Shown here piece after piece: positions 1 to 15,700 of a DNA stretch of 64,000 nucleotides. Position 1 is the first letter of the stretch. Each line of letters starts with the position of its first letter. The DNA is from Bolinopsis microptera (Eukaryota > Ctenophora > Tentaculata > Lobata > Bolinopsidae). The notes under the pieces are model-generated. The model saw only the letters and a list, made by a program, of their open reading frames with translations, searched no databases and was not told where the DNA came from. The stretch lies in the NCBI RefSeq assembly GCF_026151205.1, contig NC_087080.1:5993096-6057095 (forward strand), given 5' to 3'. Position numbers and translations under genes: made by a program.

Positions 1-205
1 GTTTCCTCTTCTACCTCCGTTTCCTCTTCTACCTCCGTTTCCTCTTCCACATACATTTCCTCCTCTACATTCGTTTCCTCTTCTACCTCCGTTTCCTCTT
101 CTACCTCCGTTTCCTCTTGATCTTCTACATACGTTTCCTCTTCTACAATCGTTTCCTCTTCTACCTCCGTGTCCTCTTCTACCTCCATTTCCTCTTCTAC
201 CTCCG
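1..205 (-). repeat. 18-bp coding minisatellite (acidic tail)
   Basis: An 18-bp unit (plus strand gtttcctcttctacctcc) repeats about eleven times with small changes. It stays in frame with the ShKT exon and gives a Glu/Val/Thr-rich tail. One unit has an in-frame insertion near 118-135. Confidence 0.75.
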
Positions 206-3200
206 TCTCATCTTCATCTTTCTCCACTTCACAAAATCCACAAGATTTTGCGCAATTAACTGTCATAGACTCATAGTGTTCGCTACCTGTGGATTATTTG
301 GACATTAGGATTTGAGCAAGACTTTGGATGTAAATTGCAGGAAAGAAAATCCTTTTTATCGCACTCAAATAAGCTCTTTCATTCAAATTTCTGATTGTTT
401 CTGAATAGACGCAGTGGAGACAGATTCTAATGGAAATAAATAGCTGAATAACGTATCGACATTTCTACGTCATACTCATATTCTGAAATAGTATTAATTC
501 AATTATAACGATCAATATGTACATGATTAAAAATTTGACGACGAAATTTATTTCAAACAAAATATATAACTGTAAAATAGTTATCCACTGTAAAACAGTG
601 GATTTTACAGTGGATAACTATTTTACAGTCATATATTTTGTTTGAAATAAATTTCGTCGTCAAATTTTTAATGTACATATTGATCGCTATAATTGAATTA
701 ATACTATTTCAGAATATGTATTCGACGTAGAAATGTCGATACGTTATTCAGCTATTTATTTCCATTAGAATCTGTCTTCACTGAGTCTATTCGGAAACAA
801 TCAGAAATTTGAATGAAAGAACTATCAAATCATGAGACTCAATAACACTACACGAATCCACCAGATTACTCAAATAAGCAATGTTTGTTACATATTGTAC
901 CTGAATCGCAGTATCCATTAGACATCCAACTCGCGCAGTTTCCAGCATGTTCAGAATTGTCTGCACAACCTGTGGATGTTTGAAAGGTCTTTTGATATCT
1001 AAAAACCACAAGCGTCACGACGAAAATATTTTCCGTTTATTTATAAGAAAGGCATCATGTAGCCGGTGGGCCCGACATGATACGACATATCTCGACACGT
1101 CGGGGTTTGTCGGGGTTTGTCGGGATTCGTTAATAATGGATGAAAAGTGATAAGAAGTTGCTTAAAGAAGATTGATCAATGGCAGTCACGGGCTGTTGAT
1201 TTTTTTTTTAAATTTTTATTTACGTATTTATTTATTTATTTATTTAAAACTTTTAAAAATAAATAATAATAAACAGAGGCCTCATGTAGCCGGTGGGCCC
1301 GACATGATACGACATATCTCGACACGTCGGGGTTTGTCGGGGTTTGTCGAGCCTGGAGGCTACATGTTGCCTTAAGAAGCGATTGCAAAAACAAATAATT
1401 TCTGCCATATTGTTCAAAGTTTAGTCTTGAAGTCTTAGTAATCTTACCATCTCCAACCTCCTTCACTTGACAAAAGCCACAAGTCTTAGCGCAATTAAAA
1501 AGCATTCCTCCATAGTGTTCACTACCTGTAGATTGTAGTTACGTTTATTGACAATGTTTTTAATGCAATATTAAGGGGGCCGGGGGGGGGTCTTCATCAA
1601 AATTCTCTCGAAATCGACTTTATAGTTGTTTCTGATAGAGGGGAGTGATATCTATCAGCTGCTTTTGGTCCCATGGAAAAATATTGTTCCTAGCCGAAAT
1701 TATCGCTGGTCAAAGGTCAGCGCTTATGTGTAATTGTATTGTGCGAGCGATTTTCAATCGCGCGTTCTGAAAATCGAGTCTAAAAATCTATCTTCTCCTA
1801 CATTTTTTGAGCAATCACCCTCAAACTTTTAGGATATGTTCTTTGGATCAGTAAGAAGAGAACTCTAGAGCCAGAATTTTGAGATAGGCCTTTAAAGATT
1901 TTTAATCCGATTTTGAAATTCTTGGACCTCTAAAAATTAAGGTCCAAGAATTTCAAAATCGAATTAAAAATCTTTAAAGGCCTATCTCAAAATTCTGGCT
2001 CTAGAGTTCTCTTCTTACTGATCCTAAGAACATATCCTGAAAGTTTGAGGGTGATTGCTCAAAAAATGTAGGAGAAGATAGATTTTTAGACTCGATTTTC
2101 AGAACCCGCGATTGAAAATCGCTCGCGCAATACAATTACACATAAGCGCTGACCTTTGACCAGCGATAATTTCGGCTAGGAACAATATTTTTCCATGGGA
2201 CCAAAAGCAACTGATAGATATCACTCCCCTCTATCAGAAACAACTATAAAGTCGATTTCGAGAGAATTTTGATGAAGACCCCCCCCCCCCCCGGCCCCCT
2301 TAACGGATAGAATAATTAACTTGGAATTAAAACGACCTATTTTCAATATTTGGGATATATTAGCTAGTATAGAATTTGGTAATGTAGTTAAAATCACCTG
2401 AATCACAGTATCCAGCAGCCATCCAACCTGCACAACTTGCGGCATGTTCAGATTTGTCTGCACAATCTGTGGATGTTTTAAAGAGTATTCTGATGAATAA
2501 ATACCTCCAGCTTCATTATTATTAAAATTTTAAACATTAAGTTAATCAGAATCCATTCAAAAATTAGATAATTTCTACGATTTTGTAAGTGCAAGGAATT
2601 TTTGAACCAAATTGTGAATTTGTAATTTATTACCTTCTTCTTCCTCCACTTCACAAAGGCCGCACGTCATCGGGCAATTAGCGATCATAAACTCATAGTG
2701 TTCACTTCCTGTGGATCATTTGGGTTTTCAGATCGCAGCAAAACTTTTGATATAAAATGCGATAAAAGAAAATCATTAATCATTCAACCCTATTGCCCTT
2801 TTACTCCTCAGCTTTCGGTCAAATGGGCATGTGCATCAATGGGCATATATGCATCTTTAAGCCTTAAGAACAGCTGAAACTTGAGTTATTATGAAAATCG
2901 TGTTCTCCGTGGCCGTCCTCTAATAAGCAAGTACAGCTATATTTCAGTTCAATAGAGTATAATATCAGAAATTATTATTTTTGGCCAAAATTTTACCAAA
3001 AAATGATGAAAATGATGCCCATTTTGGCTATTTCTTTTGTACCTTGATCACAAAATCCAGTAGACAGCCAACCTGCGCAGCTTTCAGCATGTTCGGATTT
3101 GTCTTCACAACCTGCTGTAATATAAGGGTAGTTTAATTGACAATATTAATTTAAAAAATGGCTGTTCAGTGTGACGCAAGCAACCAAGCAATTATGCTTT

Positions 3201-5570
3201 CTAGATAAAGATACAAATAATGTTGATACGATAAGAAATGAAAGATTGCACAAACTTAAACCTACGGTATTGTAAGTGCAAGGAATTTTTGAACCTAATT
3301 CTTAATTTGTAATTTATTACCTTCTTCTTCCTCCACTTCACAAAGGCCACACGTCATCGGGCAATTAGCGATCATAAACTCATAGTGTTCACTTCCTGCG
3401 GATCATTTGGGTTTTCAGATCGCAGCAAAACTTTTGATATGAAATGCGATAAAAGAAAATTATTACCAAGTACCAACCCTATTGCCATTTTACTCCTCAT
3501 ATTTCGGTCAAATGGGCATGTGCATCAATGGGCATGTGCATCTTTAAGCATTAAGAACAGCTGAAACTTGAGTTGAAAATCGTGTTCTCCGTCCTCTAAT
3601 AAGCAAGTAGAGCTCTATATTTCAGTCCAATAGAGTATAATATCAGAAATCATATTTTGACGATTTTTACCTAAATTTGACCAAAAATTGGTGAAAATGA
3701 TGCCCAATTTGGCTATTTCTTTTATACCTTGATCACAAAATCCAGTAGACATCCAACTCGCGCAGTTTCCAGCATGTTCAGAATTGTCTGCACAACCTGT
3801 GGATGTTTGAAAGGTCTTTTGATATCTAAAAACCACAAGCGTCACGACGAAAACATTTTCCGTTTATTTATAAGAAGCGATTGCAAAAAAAAATTCTGCC
3901 ATATTGTTCAAAGTTTAGTCTTGAAGTCTTAGTAATCTTACCATCTCCAACCTCCTTCACGTGACAAAAGCCACAAGTCTTAGCGCAATTAAAAAGCATT
4001 CCTCCATAGTGTTCACTGCCTGTAGATTGTAGTTACGTTTTATTGACAATGTTTTTAATGCAATATTAATGGATAGAATAATTAACTTGGAATTAAAACG
4101 ACCGATTTTCAATATTTGGGATATTAGCTACTTGCTAGTACAGAATTTGGTAATGTAGTTAAAATCACCTGAATCACAGTATCCAGCAGCCATCCAACCT
4201 GCACAACTTGCGGCATGTTCAGATTTGTCTGCACAATCTGTGGATGTTTTAAAGAGTATTCTGATGAATAAATAACCTCCAGTTTCATTATTATTAAAAT
4301 TTAAAACATTAAGTCAATCAGAATCCATTCAAAAATAAAATAATTTCTACGATTTTGTAAGTGCAAGGAATTTTTGAACCAAATTGTTAATTTATAATTT
4401 ATTACCTTCTTCTTCCTCCACTTCACAAAGGCCACACGTCATCGGGCAATTAGCGATCATAAACTCATAGTGTTCACTTCCTGTGGATCATTTGGGTTTT
4501 CAGATCGCAGCAAAACTTTTGATATAAAATGCGATAAAAGAAAATCATTAATCATTCAACCCTATTGCCCTTTTACTCCTCAGCTTTCGGTCAAATGGGC
4601 ATGTGCATCAATGGGCATATATGCATCTTTAAGCCTTAAGAACAGCTGAAACTTGAGTTATTATGAAAATCGTGTTCTCCGTGGCCGTCCTCTAATAAGC
4701 AAGTAGAGCTCTATATTTCAGTTCAATAGAGTATAATATCAGAAATTATTATTTTTGGCCAAAATTTTACCAAAAAATGATGAAAATGATGCCCATTTTG
4801 GCTATTTCTTTTGTACCTTGATCACAAAATCCAGTAGACAGCCAACCTGCGCAGCTTTCAGCATGTTCGGATTTGTCTTCACAACCTGCTGTAATATAAG
4901 GGTAGTTTAATTGACAATATTAATTTAAAAAATGGCTGTTCAGTGTGACGCAAGCAACCAAGCAATTATGCTTTCTAGATAAAGATACAAATAATGTTGA
5001 TACGATAAGAAATGAAAGATTGCACAAACTTAAACCTACGGTATTGTAAGTGCAAGGAATTTTTGAACCAAATTCTTAATTTGTAATTGCTTACCTTCTT
5101 CTTCCTCCACTTCACAAAGGCCGCACGTCATCGGGCAATTAGCGATCATAAACTCATAGTGTTCACTTCCTGCGGATCATTTGGGTTTTCAGATCGCAGC
5201 AAAACTTTTGATATGAAATGCGATAAAAGAAAATTATTACCAAGTACCAACCCTATTGCCCTTTTACTCCTCATATTTCGGTCAAATGGGCATGTGCATC
5301 AATGGGCATGTGCATCTTTAAGCATTAAGAACAGCTGAAACTTGAGTTGAAAATCGTGTTCTCCGTCCTCTAATAAGCAAGTAGAGCTCTATATTTCAGT
5401 CCAATAGAGTATAATATCAGAAATCATATTTTGACGATTTTTACCTAAATTTGACCAAAAATTGGTGAAAATGATGCCCAATTTGGCTATTTCTTTTGTA
5501 CCTTGATCACAAAATCCAGTAGACAGCCAACCTGCGCAGCTTTCAGCATGTTCGGATTTGTCTGCACAAC
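1..5570 (-). CDS. Multi-ShKT-domain protein, partial (3' end beyond window start)
   Basis: Two exon types alternate on the minus strand. Exons of 69 nt carry the first half of a ShKT domain (C-x-D-x(5)-C-x2-W-x4-G-x-C) at 5502-5570, 4817-4885, 4169-4237, 3728-3796, 3043-3111, 2398-2466 and 901-969. Exons of 75 or 78 nt carry the second half (M-x2-N-C-x2-T-C-G-x-C) at 5095-5169, 4406-4480, 3942-4019, 3321-3395, 2634-2708, 1448-1525 and 286 to below 1. All are flanked by phase 1 introns, so each pair makes one roughly 48-residue domain; seven are present. The last exon runs into an acidic six-residue repeat (E-V-E-E-E-T) that leaves the window. ShKT modules are disulphide-rich and usually extracellular; some occur in channel-blocking peptides, others in enzymes or structural proteins. 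No signal peptide or first exon is visible, so secretion and role are inferred only. Confidence 0.8.
376..819. repeat. Foldback element, about 220-bp inverted arms
   Basis: Bases 376 to about 597 are nearly the reverse complement of about 598 to 819, with almost no spacer. The centre is itself a small palindrome around gtggattttacagtgg. It lies in the last visible ShKT intron. The corresponding intron at 3396-3727 lacks it, so it is an insertion. Confidence 0.8.
1049..1372. mobile_element. MITE, TIR ggcatcatgtagcc, composite copy 1
   Basis: It begins ggcatcatgtagcc and ends ggctacatgttgcc, an inverted pair. Inside are tandem gtcggggttt decamers and a second start of the same element at about 1277, so two copies are nested or concatenated around an AT-rich middle. 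The homologous ShKT intron near 3860 runs ttataagaagcgattgc without it. Confidence 0.7.
1571..2303. mobile_element. Long-TIR MITE with TTAA target duplication
   Basis: Bases 1575-2299 form a giant inverted repeat with arms of about 355 bp. The ends are gggggccggggg and cccccggccccc, each bordered by TTAA (1571-1574, 2300-2303). The homologous intron at about 4066-4080 has one uninterrupted TTAA at that point. TTAA targeting is typical of piggyBac-type transposition. There is no transposase ORF, so the copy is non-autonomous. Confidence 0.8.
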
Positions 5571-5646
5571 CTGCTGTAAGGGTACTTTAAATGACAATAT
5601 TAATAAGATTGACCCGTCAGTGTGACGCAAGCAAACAAGAAATTAT

Positions 5647-5951
5647 GAGGCATCATGTAGCCGGTGGGCCCGACATGATACGACATATCTCGACACGTCG
5701 GGGTTTGTCGGGGTTTGTCAGGGTTTGTCGGGGTTTGTCGGGGTTTCCGGTTTGTCGAGCCTGGAGGCTTCTTTTTTTTTTCTTCCAACAAAAAGCCGAG
5801 ACGGAGTCATCAAGCTTTACGTGGAAAAACACTATACAAGAAGGCCTCATGTAGTCGGTTGGCCCGAGGCAAAACCCCTCGACAAACCCCGTTTGTCGGG
5901 GTTTGTCGGGATATGTCGGGGTTTGTCGAGCCTGGAGGCTACATGATGCCT
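5647..5951. mobile_element. MITE, TIR ggcatcatgtagcc, composite copy 2
   Basis: Same family as 1049-1372. It starts ggcatcatgtagcc and ends ggctacatgatgcc, with two partial copies joined through a T-rich stretch at 5768-5785 and variable numbers of the gtcggggttt decamer. ATTATG occurs on both sides and is a likely target duplication; the homologous ShKT introns have a single attatg there. Confidence 0.7.
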
Positions 5952-6625
5952 ATTATGTTTTAAATTAAGATACAATTAAATTTACATGGTATTGATATGA
6001 AAGGAAATAAAAAATTGCAAAAATGTAAACCTCGAGAATGTGTTGGTAGACAAAGGAATGCTAGTAGTAAGCTGCAAAATTTAATCTTCTTCATTATTTC
6101 GTTTGATACCCGAAATTCGTAGTTCTTAGCTTTTTATAAAATACGACACAAATGAAAGAGGTTCGTTTGATAAACTGCAATAATGGCAATAAATCGTTTT
6201 CTTTGGAATTGGCTTAGATTTAATTACAATCACCATACAACATGGTCAAGTCACCCTCAAAAAAGACAATAACCCTCAACTCTGATATAGCTGTGAAAGT
6301 ACAGGACTTGACTGGAATTCAATTTGTCACGTGACCAACTAGACCGCGACCAGTCAGTAAACAATACTCCTCTTTATTTGAAAACTGTTCGATTTAGTTA
6401 GGACAATTCATTTCATAACGAAAATTGTAGAACAATAGATCTAAATTTCATCACAAAAAGATCTTGAGTGCAAGGCATCGCATCTAGATTGTAGAATATC
6501 TTCTAATGGTATAATTCAAGTTTTAAAGTAAAACATAAGAAATTAAACGTACAGTGTTCCAAATATAAAATAATATTTTATATTGTATACGTAAACGTAT
6601 ATAAGTATATTACACTTATAATATA
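5952..6625. other. No gene seen; decayed ShKT-intron homology
   Basis: Bases 5955-6060 still resemble the ShKT introns at 3190-3290 and 4970-5060, but no further ShKT exon can be read upstream. The rest is AT-rich with no supported coding sequence. Confidence 0.5.
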
Positions 6626-7392
6626 CAGGGTGGGCCAAAAGTCAGTGTGCAAACGTTGGGTCTTATACCTCCGCCGTGTTTTGTATTTGAGAGCTGTTGC
6701 TTTGCAGATGGCATACTGTACTTACTGGTTCGAGGATTCCGTCGTCAAAATTTGAAAATTCGAATATTTTAGACCACGCCCATTCAATATTAAAACACCT
6801 ATATTGTTTTCTCTGAACATGCTGAACGCCTAATTTTTTCAGAGACGGTAGATTATCAAATTTTGCATATGATCTGAAAACATGAGGCAAAACGGATTAG
6901 AAATGAAGAAGTTATCAAGCATTTTGTGTATCTCGTTAACAAAATTGACTGGGTGATTATGTGACACCGTGACACGACACCTTAATTGGGCACCCTTAAC
7001 AATTCCCATAATGTTTAACGGGGTAGTTAACGGGGTCACCTTATCACGTGATTAGGTAAACCAATCACCTGATCACACGTAATGAATAAACTCGTTATGC
7101 TTCATATCTCGGTCATCTGAGAAGCTACAGTTCTAATTCTTTCAGGACAAACGTAATTCGAATGGCCAAACACAATTCAATAACATTTAGCTTGATCCGA
7201 CTATCCAAACTATCAAATAAATGTGAAAATGAACCTCCATTTGAAAAAAATGAACGCGAATATTTTTCGAGTTTACAAATTCCTCGAACCAGTGGTGGTA
7301 CTAAGTCATACCAGAAGGAAGTATTTCAATTGGGCACTCAGTGACTGAGCTATTAAGGCCAACGTTTGCACACTGACTTTTGGCCCACCCTG
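6626..7392. mobile_element. Mariner/Tc1-type MITE
   Basis: The 767-bp segment starts CAGGGTGGGCCAAAAGT and ends with its reverse complement. The inverted ends are about 33 bp and continue through gtcagtgtgcaaacgttgg. The end sequence resembles termini seen in mariner-like elements. Inside are only short ORFs and no D,D-x catalytic motif, so it is non-autonomous. Confidence 0.8.
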
Positions 7393-8208
7393 CACTGTAT
7401 AATATACTTTCAGCATATTATAATTTATAACTTTATAATAAGTCATAATCAATGAAAATTTAAAGACACCAAAATCTTCACAATTTGCCTATTATATAAT
7501 CGTAACGGGAGTCAAGTTGTTATACAACAGAAGCTGGGAATTCTAACAATAACTTCCAGGTGCCAACATCCAGAAAGTTTAAAATTTCCTTTCTCCTAAA
7601 AATTCATAAGCAGACATTTGATCATTTAATACAATAACAGCCATTATAAAATGCCCTAAAAAATGTCAGGTCTTCGCAGATTATCTGCCGATCTGCCTTC
7701 TTTCTGGATGTGGGGCCAGCTGCCTATTTGTTAATAATGACAGATCATTGAAGGTATTGTTATTATCAAATGCATACAATATTATAATAACAGTAATTGT
7801 TGTAGTCGCTATAAAATGATTTATTGAAAATCCCTCGTGGGGGGTGTGTCTCTAATGGACTCATTTATTACATACATACACATTATAGTACATCAAAGTC
7901 ATTTTAAAAATAAAGACCCCTATTGGCACCGTACCCCTGATCAAATTTGGTACCTTGATCGTCTCCGGTGAAGATTTGCTCTACAATCTACAATTCTACA
8001 TGTTGCTATTTGACAAGAACTTCAGACTCCACTGTAAAAGGGTTTCCCACTCCCGTCAAGGGTCTCGTCCCTAATCGGAATTTTTAACTGACTTAAAATT
8101 ACAATCAATCAATGCTGTTATTTCTGATAACAATCCCTAGACCTAACTTGACGTGTAACCATGTGACACGTGTGATCACCTGATCAATTAACATTTAACA
8201 CGTGACCG
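7393..8208. other. Intergenic, no gene seen
   Basis: AT-rich sequence upstream of the PAN2-like exons. I looked for exons encoding the PAN2 WD40 part and found none. Confidence 0.5.
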
Positions 8209-8239
8209 GTGACAGTAACTGACACCAAGCTCTCTTCAG

Positions 8240-9517
8240 GAATGTCAACGAATGACAGCGAGTTCTGGGCTAACCAAGTGAGCATCCACAAAGAAGAGAA
8301 CCACAAAAGCTGTCCTTCGGGGAAAAACTGCAACAACTCCGAATGTAAGCTTAGTCACGGTGTGGGACAGAGCAGTTGGTTACCCCTCAATGTGAGTATA
8401 TAGCACGTGACATGGCGTCCTACCACGTGACATGACGTCATACCCATCCGACATGACGTCCTACCACGTGACATGATGTCATACCACGTGACATGCCATT
8501 TCTTCGCGTGAAACGACGGTACACATCAGATGACCTCACGACCATTTCTCCCCTCAGTTCCATATCAAAGCTCCCAATGAGCACGGAGCATTGCAGTTCG
8601 CTAGAGGTCTACATGACGACAAGGAGAACTCTAAGGACTCTAATATACACGTGTTTGAGTATGAGTTGTGCTCTGTGATCGCAATGATTGACGCTCCTAG
8701 TAAGTTATACATTATAATACATATTGCATTGTTAAAATATTTGATATGTACTCAATATCATTATTCATAATTATAGAATATAGACTATAGAGTATAGGCT
8801 TGACATAAGCAAGCTGGAATTATATTTATTATTAGAATAAGAAACGCAGAAAAGATTAAAATTAGAAATTGAGATAGATAACTTGGTGTGGCATCTCCCG
8901 AATCGAACGGGTAATCATTTGGTTAATAGGCTTGACTACTTGAGTGTTGGTTATCTCAACACCACGTGACGTGACTTCACACCATGACCACGTGACATGA
9001 CGTCACGCTCTATTTATTACAGCGTCACAAGGTCTAATGTTACACTCGCTTGTGGGGAGGAACTACCATCAGAGACAAGGTATAGACGACTGTGCCTGGT
9101 ATCTGTTCAACGGCTGCTCTGCTATCAGCACTCATAACAAGGTAGGTTAATTGGGGCTACAATTATCATAACATCAGTTCACCATGCTTAAACCATTTTT
9201 GAATTGAACTGATTTGTACTCTTTCCAAACCACATTAGTATTGATCTTTAAAATAAATATTCTTCCCAAATTATGAGAAGATGATGGGTCCAGCACTAAA
9301 AAGAGAACACTAACACTAGAAAGAGAACAACCTCGTTATCACTTTTCAGGAAGCTACCAGTTTCGGACAGCCCTGGAAGACTCCGTGTACAATAGTATAC
9401 AAACAAGTGAAACTTCCCAAGGAGCTCTTCAACCATTCCACTCCAAACCCCCACGAACTTTTTACCCCTTTCAACATTATACCGGTTAGTTAGTTAGTCG
9501 ATTAATTAGTTAGTTGA

Positions 9518-9599
<82 letters not shown>

Positions 9600-11322
9600 G
9601 ACACAATACCGGTTAGTTTTTAGTTTAAAATTATATGTCACAATGGTGTGACTTCATTATATTTCTTTACATGTATTATGTTTAGGATGCAACCTAATGT
9701 CATGATATTTTTGAACTTATTAGCAATTAGACTGTTAGCTCGCTTCATAAGCATGTCATCTTCGTTCCAAAACTTTTTATGTCCTATGCATACACTCCTT
9801 GATAGTTATCTTGATCTAGTATCTTTGTTTCACACAATAGAGCATAAGTTGTGTGGTTTATCCACTGGGCTTAGATTTTGTGTTTAAGCTACCAAATTTT
9901 ATTATTTTTTATTATTATTATTATGTTCTTTCGATTAGTTATCTGAAGCTAAGTGATCTGACAGAGTACTACAATACATTTAGTAGCACATCCTCAAATG
10001 CAGAATTTAAAACCTGTAATTCACATAAGTCTTAAAACACATTATTTAGTTTCAAACATAACGACTCATAAAGTCATAATTTCCTTTGATGTTCGACTAT
10101 AAGATCTCCAACAAGAAACAAATCCTTGTGTTTAACCATGTCCACTAACCTGGGTGTCCCTCAGGGTCCTAACCTGATACCATTAGCATCTACAGAGAAC
10201 ATCACAAAAGGAGAGCTGGTAGGAATAGGGCTGTGTGTAGAGCCTGCTCCTAACTGCCTGTTAAGAGTGGTTTTAGTCAGAGGTCAGGGTGACCAGGAGG
10301 GTGTTCCTTTCAGTCACGATGTCTGCCCGACTAACTACGCTCCTGTGAGTTGTTCAGCTGACATGTTGTTTAAAGATATTGTGTGTTGAATAATTCATAA
10401 ACATATTCTAATTATACATTATTTTTGAATATTGTGCAAGACTGTTTTGTACTTTGCATATTAAAGCGTCTCAATCTTCTCGTACAATTTACATGTAAAA
10501 TGTAAAGACGTAAAGTGTCAACAGATGAGTGTCAAATACTGCATATAATATTTTCTGGAGTTTAGAATAATATTATTTTGTAGGCTGTAAAGTCATGTTA
10601 CTGTCTCAATGACGAATGCCTTATGCCAGACATTTGTGGATTTGGTTTTGCGCTGCTGTATAATGTATACACAGTATACTTTACTTCGCTACTTTCTCAC
10701 CAGTGTATCAGTTTTGATAAAAGTATGAATTATCTGATAATTGATCATCCACAGGAGGGTCACCAAAACGTGAAGTTACTTTACTTTAAGATAAAGTGTT
10801 TGGTGGACAGAGGGTTGATTTTAGTAGGACACAGCATTACCAAGCAGCTCAAATACCTGAACATTCACATACCCGCTCAACAGTACATTGACACTGCAGA
10901 GCTCTACCGACCTCAGCACTCTGGTGAGTCGATATTTTCAATAATTGCTCAAATATCTCATAATATCTTATCTATATTTACTCAAATATCTCATATCTTA
11001 TCTACATTTGCTCAAATATCTCATAATATTTTATCTATATTTACTCAAATATCTCATATCTTATCTACATTTGCTCAAATATCCCATAAGTTTATTCCAA
11101 ATTGTGGTACAATAACAAATAACACAATATAACAAATAACACACCTACGTCACAGGAGCAATACCACCACTACAGTTCCTTTGTCCGAGAATACTAAAAG
11201 TAGAGAACGTGCCTGGGGCCCACAACGACGCTGTCTTCTCCCTTCAGCTCTACGAGAAGTTCTTAGACCTCAAACGTGCTGGGCAGTTCGAGAAAACTCT
11301 AAAAGCTATACACTCGGAGTAG
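8240..11322 (+). CDS. PAN2-like protein, C-terminal half, nuclease motifs lost
   Basis: Eight exons join in phase: 8240-8391, 8558-8699, 9023-9141, 9350-9484, 10165-10344, 10584-10664, 10755-10923 and 11156-11322 (stop TAG). From ATG 8242 they give about 380 residues. Exons 1-4 match the end of the PAN2 UCH-like domain, including Y-H-Q-R, W-Y-L-F-N and a small C-x5-C-x4-C-x3-H cluster. Exons 5-8 match the PAN2 exonuclease region through V-R-G-Q-G-x2-E-G-x-P-F, D-x-G-x3-V-G-H and L-Q-L-Y. PAN2 normally shortens mRNA poly(A) tails with PAN3. Here the first catalytic block (L-D-A-E in PAN2) reads I-G-L-C, the Asp after VGH is Gln, and the His/Asp spacing of the last block is shortened. The WD40 half is absent. 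It may be a non-catalytic paralog or a decaying gene. Exon 6 boundaries are least certain. Confidence 0.75.
8402..8492. repeat. 20-bp repeat with E-box and CRE cores
   Basis: About four and a half copies of taccacgtgacatgacgtca lie in the first visible intron of the PAN2-like gene. Each joins CACGTG to a TGACGTCA-like core. Related stretches recur at 8960-9010, 11323-11404 and 11745-11815. Confidence 0.7.
8885..8968 (-). repeat. Possible tRNA-derived repeat
   Basis: The minus strand contains a B-box-like GTTCGATTC inside a 4-bp stem (CCCG/CGGG), and ggtgt/acacc could pair as an acceptor end. The A box is poor. A related sequence beginning ggtattgagata lies at about 16025-16080. A tRNA-derived SINE fragment is more likely than a working tRNA. 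Confidence 0.25.
9485..9600. repeat. GTTA tetranucleotide microsatellite
   Basis: A long run of gttagttag with a few interruptions starts exactly at the 5' splice site of the fourth PAN2-like intron, so the donor is part of the array. Confidence 0.85.
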
Positions 11323-11404
11323 TCATGTCACGTGACGTCATGTCATGTGTGATGACGTCATGTCATGTGTGATGACGTCATGTCACGTGACATGTGACGT
11401 CACC
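11323..11404. repeat. CRE/E-box-rich tandem repeat after the PAN2-like stop
   Basis: Repeats of gatgacgtcatgtcatgtgt with TGACGTCA and CACGTGAC cores begin directly after the stop codon and would fall in the 3' UTR. Confidence 0.65.
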
Positions 11405-12755: not shown

Positions 12756-15700
12756 ATGTCTATAAAATACGTGTGTTTATTCGTCTTAGTTCTACAGGTA
12801 ACTACAGAAAATTTCTTTACTATTGTTTTAGAGCAATGGAGGGGGGGTGTCACGTCCGTCTATGTCCGCTTGTCTCATAGAATCCAAAAAGGACAGGACA
12901 TAGGCGGACATAGGCGGACATAGGCGGACATAGGCGGACATAGACGGACATAGGCGGACATAGACGGACATAAACGGACATAAACGGACATTAATGGACA
13001 CCTAAATTGCTAAATAAAATGTTCAATTTTTGCTGTTATATGGGGGATCATGTTTTTTGTCCGGTACCCTATAAGTATATTTTCAAAACGGACAAAAAAT
13101 AGAGCGGACAAAAACGGACAAAAATGGAAATAAAATTTAGATGCTTCCTCCTCCTACTCTTCCTCCTCTCCTCCTCCTCGTCCTCAGTCCTCCTCATCAG
13201 TCCTCAACAGTCCTCCTCCTCCCCAGTCCTCCTCCTCCTGAGTCCTCCTCCTGGGTCCTCCTCCTCCTCTTCATCCTCCTCCTCAGTCCTCCTCATTAGT
13301 CCTCAATAGTCCTCCTCCTCCCCAGTCCTCCTCCCCCCTCCTCCTCCTATTCAGTCCTCCTCCTCCTCAGTCCTCCAGACCTGTCCTCCTCCTTCTCAGT
13401 CTTCCTCAGTCCTTCTCAGTCCTCCTCCTCCTCCTCCTCTTCCCTCTCAGTCATCCTCCTCAGCCATCCTCCTCAGTCCTCCTCAGTCCTCCTCCTCCTG
13501 GGTCCTCCTCCTCCTCTTCATCCTCCTCCTCTTCCTCCTCCTCCTCAGTCCTCCTCCTCAGTCCTCCTTCTCATCAGTCCTCCTCCTCCTCAGTCCTCTC
13601 CCAGTCCCCCTCCTTCTCCTCCTCCTATTCATTCCTCCTCCTCCTCCTCCTCCTCCTCAGTTCTCCTCAGTCCTCCTTCTCATTTCTCCTAAGTCCCCCT
13701 CGTAAGTCCTCCTCCTCCTCTTCCTCCTGAGTCCTCCTCCTGAGTCCTCCTCCTCCTCCCTCTCAGTCATCCTCCTCAGTCATCCTCCTCAGCCATCCTC
13801 CTCAGCCATCCTCCTCAGCCATCCTCCTCAGTACTCCTCAGTCCTCCTGCTTCTCAGTCATCGTCTGATCGTCAGTCCTCCTCCTCAGTCCTCCTCAGTC
13901 CTCCTCAGTCCTCCTCCTCCTCCTGGGTCCTCCTCCTCCTCCCCCTCCTGGGTCCTCCTGATCCTCCTGGGTCTTCCTGATCCTCCCCAGTCCTCTTCCT
14001 CCTCCCCTCCTCAGTCCTCCTCCTACTCCTCCTCCTCGTCCTTAGTTCTCCTCATCAGTCCTCAACAGTCCTCCTCCTCCCCAGTCCTCCTCCTCCTCCT
14101 GGGGCCTTTTCCTGGGTCCTCTTCCTGGGTCCTCCTCCTCCTGGGTCCTCCTCCTCCTGGGTCCTCCTCCTCCTGGGTCCTCCTCCTCCTGGGTCCTCCT
14201 CCTCCTGGGTCTTCCTTCTCCTCCTCAGTCCTTCTCCTCCTCCTCTTCCTCCTCCTCCTCCCTCTCAGTCATCCTCCTCAGCCATCCTCCTCAGCCATCC
14301 TCCTCAGTCCTCCTCCTTCTCAGTCCTCCTCCTGAGTCCTCCTCCTGAGTCATCCTCCTGAGTTCTCCTCCTACTCCTCCTCCTCGTCCTCAGTTCTCCT
14401 CATCAGTCCTCAACAGTCCTCCTCCTCCCCAGTCCTCCTCCTCCTCCTGGGTCCTCCTCCTGGGTCCTCCTCCTCCTGGGTCCTCCTCCTCCTGTGTCCT
14501 CCTCCTCCTGGGTCCTCCTTCTCCTTCTCAGCCCTTCTCCTCCTCCTCTTCCTCCTCCTCCTCCCTCTCAGTCATCCTCCTCAGCCATCCTCCTCAGCCA
14601 TCCTCCTCAGTCCTCCTCCTTCTCAGTCCTCCTCAGTCCTCCTCCTGAGTCATCCTCCTCAGTTCTCCTCCTCCTCCTCCTAGGTCCTCCTTCTGGGTCC
14701 TCCTCCTCCTCCTCCTGGGTCTTCCTGATCCTCCTCCTCCCTCTCAGTCATCCTCCTCAGTCATCCTCCTCAGTCATCCTCCTCAGCCATCCTCCTCAGC
14801 CATCCTCCTCAGCCATCCTCCTCAGTACTCTTCAGTACTCTTCAGTCTTCCTCCTTCTCAGTCCTCCTCAGTCCTCCTCCTGAGTCCTCCTCCTCCTGGG
14901 TCTTCCTGACCCTCCCCAGTCCTCTTCCTCCTCCCCTCCTCAGTCCTCCTCCTACTCCTCCTCCTCGTCCTCAGTCCTCCTCATCAGTCCTCAACAGTCC
15001 TCCTCCTCCCCAGTCCTCCTCCTCCTCCTCCTCCTGGGGCCTTTTCCTGGGTATATTTGATATAATAAGTTAAAGCTATTAATAGCTTTAGTGTGATTAA
15101 TAAGTCGTTTGTTTTGTACAAAATTATAATACATAGAAGTTGCGAAAAATTCTCAAAATGTTTGTCCGCTAATGTCCACCAATGTCCGCTAATGTCCACC
15201 AATGTCCGTCCGAGTCCGCCAATGTCCGTCCGGGTCCGCAAATGTCCGTCCGAGTCCGCCAATGTCAGTCCGAGTCCGCCAATGTCCGTCCGTGTCCGCC
15301 AATGTCCGTCCGAGTCCGCCAATGTCCGTCTGTGTCCGCCAATGTCCCAAAAAACACGTCCGTTGTCTCATAGAATCCAAAAAGGACAGGACATAGGCGG
15401 ACATAGACGGACGTGACACCCCCCCCCCCCCCCCCCCCCCAATGGAGTTCATTTTAAAAAGGTCTGCATTGTTTATGAAGGAGTAGACTAAAAAATCCCC
15501 TATAAATCTCAATTCCAGTATTAATGCTTTTGCAATAATGTTATATAACCTTGAAATTATACGATAATCTGAGTTAAATTATTGAGTGGTTCCTGTCTCA
15601 GCTTCTCAAAAGTTGACCGCATAATGTTCTTGCTTGCTACTTTTGTGTCTGTGGCTTTGTTAGAGGTAGGAACATGATGTTATGAATACGATTACAAACA

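What the first reader, a model, noticed from the sequence alone, without database searches (positions are those of the whole stretch)
8240..11322. PAN2-like protein that keeps the fold but has lost the deadenylase active site
Eight exons stay open with canonical splice sites, and family motifs around the active site are conserved. Yet motif I (L-D-A-E) reads I-G-L-C, the motif II Asp after V-G-H is Gln, and the last block has His two residues before Asp instead of five. The WD40 half is missing. Conserved frames with lost catalysis suggest a regulatory pseudo-nuclease, for example one that still binds RNA or PAN3, rather than a fresh pseudogene.
Basis: partly seen in the sequence, partly recalled or inferred. 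Interest (0 to 1): 0.75.

Follow-up and report, generated by a model that had tools for sequence, protein, structure and literature searches.

The report
Comb-jelly PAN2 with dead nuclease
The only copy found in this animal genome of PAN2, an enzyme that trims mRNA tails in other species, is an unbroken gene whose cutting site has been destroyed, so the protein probably still holds mRNA tails with its partner PAN3 but no longer trims them.

Summary
Window 8240-11322 holds the last seven exons (not eight) of a PAN2 gene. The "missing" WD40 half lies upstream of the window edge, across a 10.3-kb intron: 20 exons, 1011 codons, one open frame, GT-AG at every intron; human PAN2 matches at E=3.6e-123.

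The exonuclease domain is catalytically dead on sequence. Motif I Asp and Glu are gone. The motif II Asp (yeast D1020) is Gln. Three residues are deleted between the motif III His and Asp. E912A or D1020A alone already inactivate yeast Pan2.

No second PAN2 exonuclease was found in the genome. PAN3 is intact and a CAF1 motif I exon is present. The nuclease domain diverged faster than the WD40 part. An old pseudogene is very unlikely.

Best reading: a non-catalytic PAN2 kept as a PAN3-bound scaffold on poly(A)-PABP, with CCR4-NOT trimming tails. Selection on the exonuclease exons could not be tested. An exon-14 CCCH motif resembles Nab2 fingers but lacks their adenosine-binding residues.

The parts
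1..8239 (+). 3' part of intron 13 (10,265 bp in all) of the PAN2 gene; exons 1-13 (WD40, PAN3-interacting segment, first part of the UCH-like domain) lie upstream of the window at C9:5986057-5991069
   Evidence: model; PAN2_N and UCH_1 matches upstream; exon 13 ends in phase 1, exon 14 begins with the two missing bases; UCH_1 profile ends at 222 upstream and resumes at 227 in the window
8240..8391 (+). exon 14: UCH-like domain, including a C-x5-C-x4-C-x3-H motif
8311..8358 (+). CCCH zinc-finger-like motif CPSGKNCNNSECKLSH inside the UCH-like domain; Nab2-like spacing but no adenosine-stacking residues
   Evidence: residues compared with PMC3874189
8558..8699 (+). exon 15: UCH-like domain
9023..9141 (+). 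exon 16: UCH-like domain (WYLFN motif)
9350..9484 (+). exon 17: end of UCH-like domain
10165..10344 (+). exon 18: start of exonuclease domain; degenerate motif I; VRGQG block kept
10225..10236 (+). degenerate motif I (IGLC in place of LDAE)
10755..10923 (+). exon 19: exonuclease domain, VGH block
10845..10847 (+). Gln codon in place of the motif II Asp (yeast D1020)
   Evidence: residue number from the chain numbering
11156..11322 (+). exon 20: end of exonuclease domain, C-terminal helix, stop codon
11221..11229 (+). shortened motif III (H-N-D in place of H-D-S-I-E-D)

Best explanation
This is the orthologue of PAN2, and the only PAN2 found in this genome: an unbroken gene whose DEDDh exonuclease domain has lost its metal-binding site. 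SHOWN: open frame over 20 exons, domain order, loss of three of the four catalytic acids, no other PAN2 exonuclease found, intact PAN3, conserved PAN3-binding segment. INFERRED: the protein is made, binds PAN3 and sits on poly(A)-PABP as other PAN2-PAN3 complexes do, but cannot remove AMP. It then works as a scaffold or tail reader (or a competitor that shields tails), and CCR4-NOT/CAF1 does the trimming. With PAN3 a pseudokinase and the UCH-like part of PAN2 an inactive hydrolase, the complex would consist of inactive enzymes only.
For: Gene model: 20 exons, GT-AG at each intron, 1011 aa. PAN2_N 4.9e-50 and UCH_1 1.6e-45; RNase_T not reported for the whole protein at E<=0.1. On the isolated domain RNase_T scores 15.5 bits, below the cut-off of 24, while an incomplete Chaetomium PAN2 exonuclease control scores 44.1. 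Catalytic positions changed. E912A and D1020A are published inactive mutants, and both were used in binding studies with poly(A) RNA or poly(A) RNPs (passages of PMC4158885 and PMC6547884). One PAN2_N locus plus its haplotig. Exonuclease searches with the window protein and with Chaetomium PAN2 find this locus, other DEDDh families and weak unexamined hits. PAN3: one open frame, 534 aa from the Met I chose, Pan3_PK 1.2e-51 (kinase and CCCH finger just under their cut-offs), E=1.7e-107 to human PAN3. PAN3-interacting segment 28 of 52 identical to human. Domain-specific divergence: exonuclease identity to human 36/103 here against 50/103 for yeast, whereas WD40 is 116/334 here against 89/323 for yeast (interaction z=2.7, p=0.007). 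Haplotig comparison over exons 1-13: 1 difference in 1920 coding bases (synonymous) against 16 in 3031 intron bases, p=0.0045. CAF1 exon with DTEF and a further exon with HSPYDF (taken by me as motif II, recalled) present.
Against: No transcript, no orthologue and no dN/dS for exons 14-20; the haplotig ends inside exon 13. 21 of 44 positions invariant in human, Chaetomium and yeast have changed, so the domain may be drifting rather than serving a role. Binding to PAN3, PABP or RNA by this protein is inferred only. Exon-by-exon searches can miss genes: the PABP MLLE search found only a UBR5-like frame (name recalled), and the Chaetomium query itself saw only exon 19 of this gene, at E=0.03. The species is inferred.
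Confidence: 0.7

Rival explanations
1. The WD40-PAN3-UCH part is useful and kept, while the exonuclease domain is only a decaying passenger without function, on its way to being lost.
For: Fast, domain-specific divergence; 21 of 44 invariant positions lost, a 3-residue deletion in motif III and a shortened motif I-VRGQG stretch.
Against: The frame is open to the very end, with a C-terminal helix like yeast's (FEKTLKAIHSE / FEKVLNSVYEE); 23 of 44 invariant positions kept. In simulated neutral decay 0 of 4000 copies stayed open at 0.2 substitutions per site with 0.1 indels per substitution, and 172 of 4000 with substitutions only; at 0.05 per site without indels 1508 of 4000 stayed open, so recent decay is not excluded. 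Exon 18-20 codons score as coding, 0.30 bits per codon against a maximum of -0.08 in 1000 intron windows.
Confidence: 0.22
2. The whole locus is a pseudogene and a working PAN2 sits in an assembly gap or was missed.
For: Active site lost; searches are exon by exon and gaps or withheld stretches read N.
Against: 1011 codons and 19 introns without a lesion; few coding differences between haplotypes in exons 1-13. PAN2_N matches only here and on the haplotig. Of the eight UCH_1 matches two are this gene, one the haplotig and five lie elsewhere; the three of those five that were held as loci fit ordinary ubiquitin hydrolases (Pfam UCH) better than UCH_1, the other two (C2, C5) were not examined. 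No other PAN2 exonuclease exons found.
Confidence: 0.03
3. The protein is still a nuclease: missed alternative exons or other residues supply the acids.
For: General aligners disagree on the motif I region; GDQEG in exon 18 contains acids; about 25 residues seem to be missing at the exon 18/19 junction (this length is judged from recalled human PAN2, not from a call).
Against: A scan of the window for [ILVF]D[ATVCLSG]E[FM] in six frames gives two hits: 721, in intron 13 ahead of the UCH-like exons and so out of order, and 24482, 13 kb past the gene. Introns 17-19, read by eye in three forward frames, show no motif. GDQEG aligns with the family's GPNEG. Three separate motifs would need replacement. 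The Chaetomium exonuclease query finds no alternative exon.
Confidence: 0.05

Closest known systems
PAN2 (PAN2-PAN3 deadenylase catalytic subunit; human 9qtu, yeast 6r5k/4q8h, Chaetomium 4czw; species names of the chains recalled)
   Same: WD40/PAN2_N, PAN3-interacting segment, UCH-like domain and a homologous exonuclease-type C-terminal domain in the same order; PAN3 in the genome
   Different: Motif I Asp and Glu, motif II Asp and motif III spacing lost; exonuclease domain shortened; CCCH motif in the UCH-like domain, not seen in the human alignment
Laboratory inactive mutants of yeast Pan2 (E912A; D1020A)
   Same: The corresponding positions are changed here by nature (E912 as the motif I Glu is my reading; D1020 by numbering); mutant complexes were used in RNA and poly(A)-RNP binding assays
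   Different: Here more active-site positions are gone, and it is the natural gene
Other DEDDh exonucleases of this genome (REXO4-like C10, REXO1-like C5, ERI1-like C1 and C11, REXO2-like C11; names given by me from recalled motifs)
   Same: Same superfamily; matched by the PAN2 exonuclease query or by RNase_T
   Different: They keep D-x-E motifs in the frames seen; those frames were not scanned for PAN2 domains, but PAN2_N matches none of these places
Nab2/ZC3H14-type CCCH zinc fingers
   Same: C-x5-C-x4-C-x3-H spacing; the only PDB matches of exon 14 at E<=10 are two Nab2 chains (whole-sequence E=8e-4); Pfam Nab2-zf4 E=0.0011 on the exon, just below its cut-off
   Different: Single finger; each single Nab2 finger matches only at i-E 9.7 or worse and Nab2-zf4 is not reported for the whole protein at E<=0.1; no basic or aromatic residue after Cys1 and no aromatic at the second place after Cys3, which Nab2 uses to stack adenines

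Membership tests
PAN2 (orthologue by architecture) | PAN2_N / WD40 domain | tested here: met
   PF20770 4.9e-50, residues 19-301
PAN2 (orthologue by architecture) | PAN3-interacting linker | tested here: met
   28 of 52 residues identical to human
PAN2 (orthologue by architecture) | UCH-like domain after the linker | tested here: met
   PF13423 1.6e-45, residues 456-785
PAN2 (orthologue by architecture) | C-terminal domain homologous to the PAN2 exonuclease | tested here: met
   Matches to human, Chaetomium and yeast PAN2 C-termini, motif II-III block i-E 1.7e-8 (human) to 1.2e-7 (Chaetomium); Pfam RNase_T below cut-off
Active PAN2 deadenylase (DEDDh) | Motif I D-x-E | tested here: not met
   G-L-C, or a gap on the alternative alignment
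Active PAN2 deadenylase (DEDDh) | Motif II Asp (yeast D1020) | tested here: not met
   Gln
Active PAN2 deadenylase (DEDDh) | Motif III H-x4-D | tested here: not met
   H-N-D, three residues deleted; Asp itself kept
Active PAN2 deadenylase (DEDDh) | Deadenylase activity | not testable with these tools
   needs protein
PAN2-PAN3 complex | Intact PAN3 in the same genome | tested here: met
   C12, 534 aa from the Met chosen, E=1.7e-107
PAN2-PAN3 complex | Physical binding of this PAN2 to PAN3 and poly(A)-PABP | not testable with these tools
   inferred from conserved segments
Pseudogene | Frame lesions or lost splice sites | tested here: not met
Pseudogene | Neutral evolution of exons 14-20 between relatives | not testable with these tools
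   no orthologue; haplotig ends in exon 13
Nab2-type poly(A)-binding zinc finger | C-x5-C-x4-6-C-x3-H spacing | tested here: met
   one match; 73 of 20000 shuffled proteins have one
Nab2-type poly(A)-binding zinc finger | Basic/aromatic residues after Cys1 and aromatic after Cys3 | tested here: not met
   C-P-S and C-K-L, compared with PMC3874189 section 14

The most novel reading that the evidence does not exclude
In ctenophores the PAN2-PAN3 machine has turned from a tail cutter into an all-pseudoenzyme reader or guard of the poly(A)-PABP array: a pseudokinase (PAN3) bound to a protein with a pseudo-hydrolase and a pseudo-nuclease domain, the latter kept for binding, with a zinc-finger-like insert in the UCH-like domain that lines the RNA entrance. 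The change may go with the loss of microRNA silencing reported for ctenophores.
Probability: 0.3. Interest if true: 0.78.

Novelty: new variant of a known kind. Interest (0 to 1): 0.62.

Why it matters
PAN2-PAN3 is treated as a conserved deadenylase that takes the first step of tail shortening. An animal whose only PAN2 found cannot cut, yet is kept whole with its partner, would separate the tail-binding role of the complex from its nuclease by natural experiment, and would predict that CCR4-NOT alone sets tail length there. It gives a direct comparative test: if the dead state is shared and constrained across ctenophores, PAN2-PAN3 has a non-catalytic function worth selecting.

Tried and rejected
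Alternative exons carrying the lost motifs: introns 17-19 read in three forward frames and the window scanned in six frames for a motif I pattern; two hits, neither in place. Second PAN2 in the genome: none found; the better-scoring exonuclease hits are other DEDDh families. The weak hits on C1, C3, C17 and C8 (E 0.04-0.27) and the UCH_1 hits on C2 and C5 were not examined; the UCH_1 hits on C7, C3 and C1 are ordinary ubiquitin hydrolases. Selection on the exonuclease exons from the haplotig C100: impossible, the contig ends inside exon 13; the ratio 4.79 printed is an artefact of counting 17 absent codons as changes and is not used. The haplotype alignment shows 490 gap columns in introns and 5 labelled as exon; the per-exon alignment shows no gap in exons 1-12. 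Nab2-like finger as a new poly(A) binder: spacing and matches fit in part but the adenosine-binding residues are absent. A fold of exon 14 alone was poor (mean pLDDT 61, pTM 0.26) and gave no meaningful match (two, best E 9.2). PABP by its MLLE domain: only a UBR5-like HECT frame was found. The Piwi search only shows that such genes exist; GW182 was not searched in the genome. Literature: the listings (15 of 359 shown) show no paper on a naturally inactive PAN2; the one paper with PAN2 and Mnemiopsis is on bivalve microRNAs and was not opened. Most subscription papers are not held.

Full report
WHAT IS THERE. The window is C9:5993096-6057095 of a 264.65-Mb genome in 232 contigs. Window 8240-11322 holds seven in-phase exons ending in TAG. 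They are exons 14-20 of a 20-exon gene at C9:5986057-6004417. Exons 1-13 lie upstream of the window's first base; intron 13 (10,265 bp) crosses it. Exon 13 ends after the first base of a codon and exon 14 supplies the other two. The UCH_1 profile is left at position 222 upstream and picked up at 227 in the window. The joined frame has 1011 codons, GT-AG at each intron, and matches human PAN2 at E=3.6e-123. The start codon is my choice (an ATG in exon 1). The human alignment begins at human residue 76 and residue 20 of the model, so an upstream exon may be missing. 'The WD40 half is missing' is thus an effect of the window edge.

THE ACTIVE SITE. Against human, Chaetomium and yeast PAN2: motif II VGHGLxxDF (LGHGL in Chaetomium) reads VGHSITKQL, so the Asp is Gln. 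By the chain numbering this is yeast D1020. Motif III HDSIEDA reads H---NDA: three residues are gone between His and the kept Asp. Motif I LDAE reads IGLC in an ungapped 22-residue block (score 25; 3 of 20000 shuffles reach it). HMMER and a global alignment prefer to gap motif I away. Neither reading restores the acids. A motif I pattern scan of the window gives two hits, neither in place (721, in intron 13 ahead of the UCH-like exons; 24482). RNase_T scores 15.5 bits on this domain (cut-off 24), against 44.1 for an incomplete Chaetomium control. In the literature E912A and D1020A each give an inactive complex (passages of PMC4158885, and PMC6547884). Here both sites and more are lost (that E912 is the motif I Glu is my reading).

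ONE PAN2, WITH ITS PARTNER. PAN2_N is found at this locus and on contig C100 only. C100 is a 27.6-kb haplotig of the same region that ends inside exon 13. Of eight UCH_1 matches, two are this gene, one the haplotig, three ordinary ubiquitin hydrolases, and two (C2, C5) were not examined. The window protein finds its own seven exons and then five weak hits (best E 0.03) among 12 matches. A Chaetomium PAN2 exonuclease query gives 3 matches: a REXO4-like gene on C10, a REXO1-like gene on C5 (names from recalled motifs, frames), and exon 19 of this gene at E=0.03. A second copy as diverged as this one might escape that query, but one with an intact, conserved domain should not (inference). PAN3 is a single open frame: Pan3_PK 1.2e-51, with kinase and CCCH-finger matches just under their cut-offs, and E=1.7e-107 to human PAN3. 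The PAN3-interacting segment of PAN2 is 28/52 identical to human. CAF1 is present on C7, with its DTEF exon.

DECAY OR USE. The exonuclease motif II-III block is less like human (36/103) than yeast's is (50/103) or Chaetomium's (63/106), although the WD40 part is more like human (116/334) than yeast's is (89/323) (interaction z=2.7, p=0.007; Chaetomium WD40 was not compared). So the nuclease domain sped up relative to the WD40 part. Of 44 positions invariant in the three references 23 are kept; the losses include D1020, the F after it, SIE of motif III and A of LA. Exons 18-20 look coding: 0.30 bits per codon with a table trained on exons 1-13 (exons 14-17: 0.17). Off-frame readings score 0.15 and -0.04, and 1000 intron windows reach at most -0.08; part of this is base composition. 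In simulated neutral decay the 171 codons stayed open in 172 of 4000 runs at 0.2 substitutions per site without indels, and in 0 of 4000 with 0.1 indels per substitution; at 0.05 without indels 1508 of 4000 stayed open. These are arguments against an old pseudogene, not proof of function of the domain. The direct test, dN/dS of exons 14-20, could not be made. For exons 1-13 the two haplotypes differ at 1 of 1920 coding bases (synonymous) and 16 of 3031 intron bases (p=0.0045), which supports constraint on that half only.

HOW IT MAY WORK. Published work has PAN3 bind the PAN2 linker and poly(A) (passages of PMC4158885). [quoted passage not shown] The linker and a similar C-terminal sequence are kept here. 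My inference: a tail-bound, non-cutting PAN2-PAN3, with CCR4-NOT trimming tails. Recruitment of PAN2-PAN3 by GW182 is recalled knowledge. The ctenophore Mnemiopsis is reported to lack recognizable microRNAs (abstract of PMC3563456; passage of PMC11811051), which might have relaxed the need for this nuclease; this link is a guess.

A SIDE FEATURE. Exon 14 carries CPSGKNCNNSECKLSH inside the UCH-like domain. The only PDB matches of this exon at E<=10 are two Nab2 chains (whole-sequence E=8e-4; each single finger i-E 9.7 or worse). Pfam Nab2-zf4 comes just under its cut-off on the exon, at E=0.019 on the window protein, and is not reported at E<=0.1 for the whole protein. 73 of 20000 shuffled proteins contain such spacing. 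But the residues with which Nab2 fingers stack adenines (basic and aromatic after Cys1, aromatic at the second place after Cys3; PMC3874189 section 14) are P-S and K-L here. So it may bind zinc; poly(A) binding is not supported. Human PAN2 has no such motif in the displayed alignment; other invertebrates were not available.

WHOSE GENOME. Size and long contigs (six seen, 17-26 Mb) fit Bolinopsis microptera: 265 Mb, 13 chromosomes, but 346 scaffolds against 232 contigs here (table passage of PMC11797021; legend of PMC10232365). This is an inference; nothing here names the species.

VERDICT. Single, unbroken PAN2 with a dead nuclease site: strong. Kept for a non-catalytic role of the complex: likely. 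Kept role of the nuclease fold itself: open. No paper on a naturally inactive PAN2 was seen in the listings (15 of 359 shown).

Noticed in passing
window 8404-9005 and 11333-11389: Eight copies (up to 2 mismatches) of CACGTGACATGACGTCA, the only ones in the window: five in introns 14 and 15 and, on the other strand, three after the stop codon; 0 expected in shuffles.
   Followed up: partly
window 8311-8358: Nab2-like CCCH spacing in the PAN2 UCH-like domain without the adenosine-binding residues.
   Followed up: yes
window 1-220, 9485-9599, 10941-11089, 12896-12991, 13146-15035, 15174-15347: Tandem arrays in and after the gene: 18-bp, GTTA, 63-bp, GGACATAGGC, TCC-rich and 20-bp units; the first continues upstream of the window (repetitive frames at C9:5992265-5993400).
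   Followed up: no
G000:C8:8551136-8552261 (L025, L026): A CAF1-domain gene with a transmembrane-like C-terminus (PNLDC1-like, name recalled) whose two halves lie in overlapping different frames: intron, frameshift or assembly slip.
   Followed up: no
G000:C100: 27.6-kb haplotig of the PAN2 5' region, blocks of 96-99% identity to C9, ending inside exon 13.
   Followed up: partly
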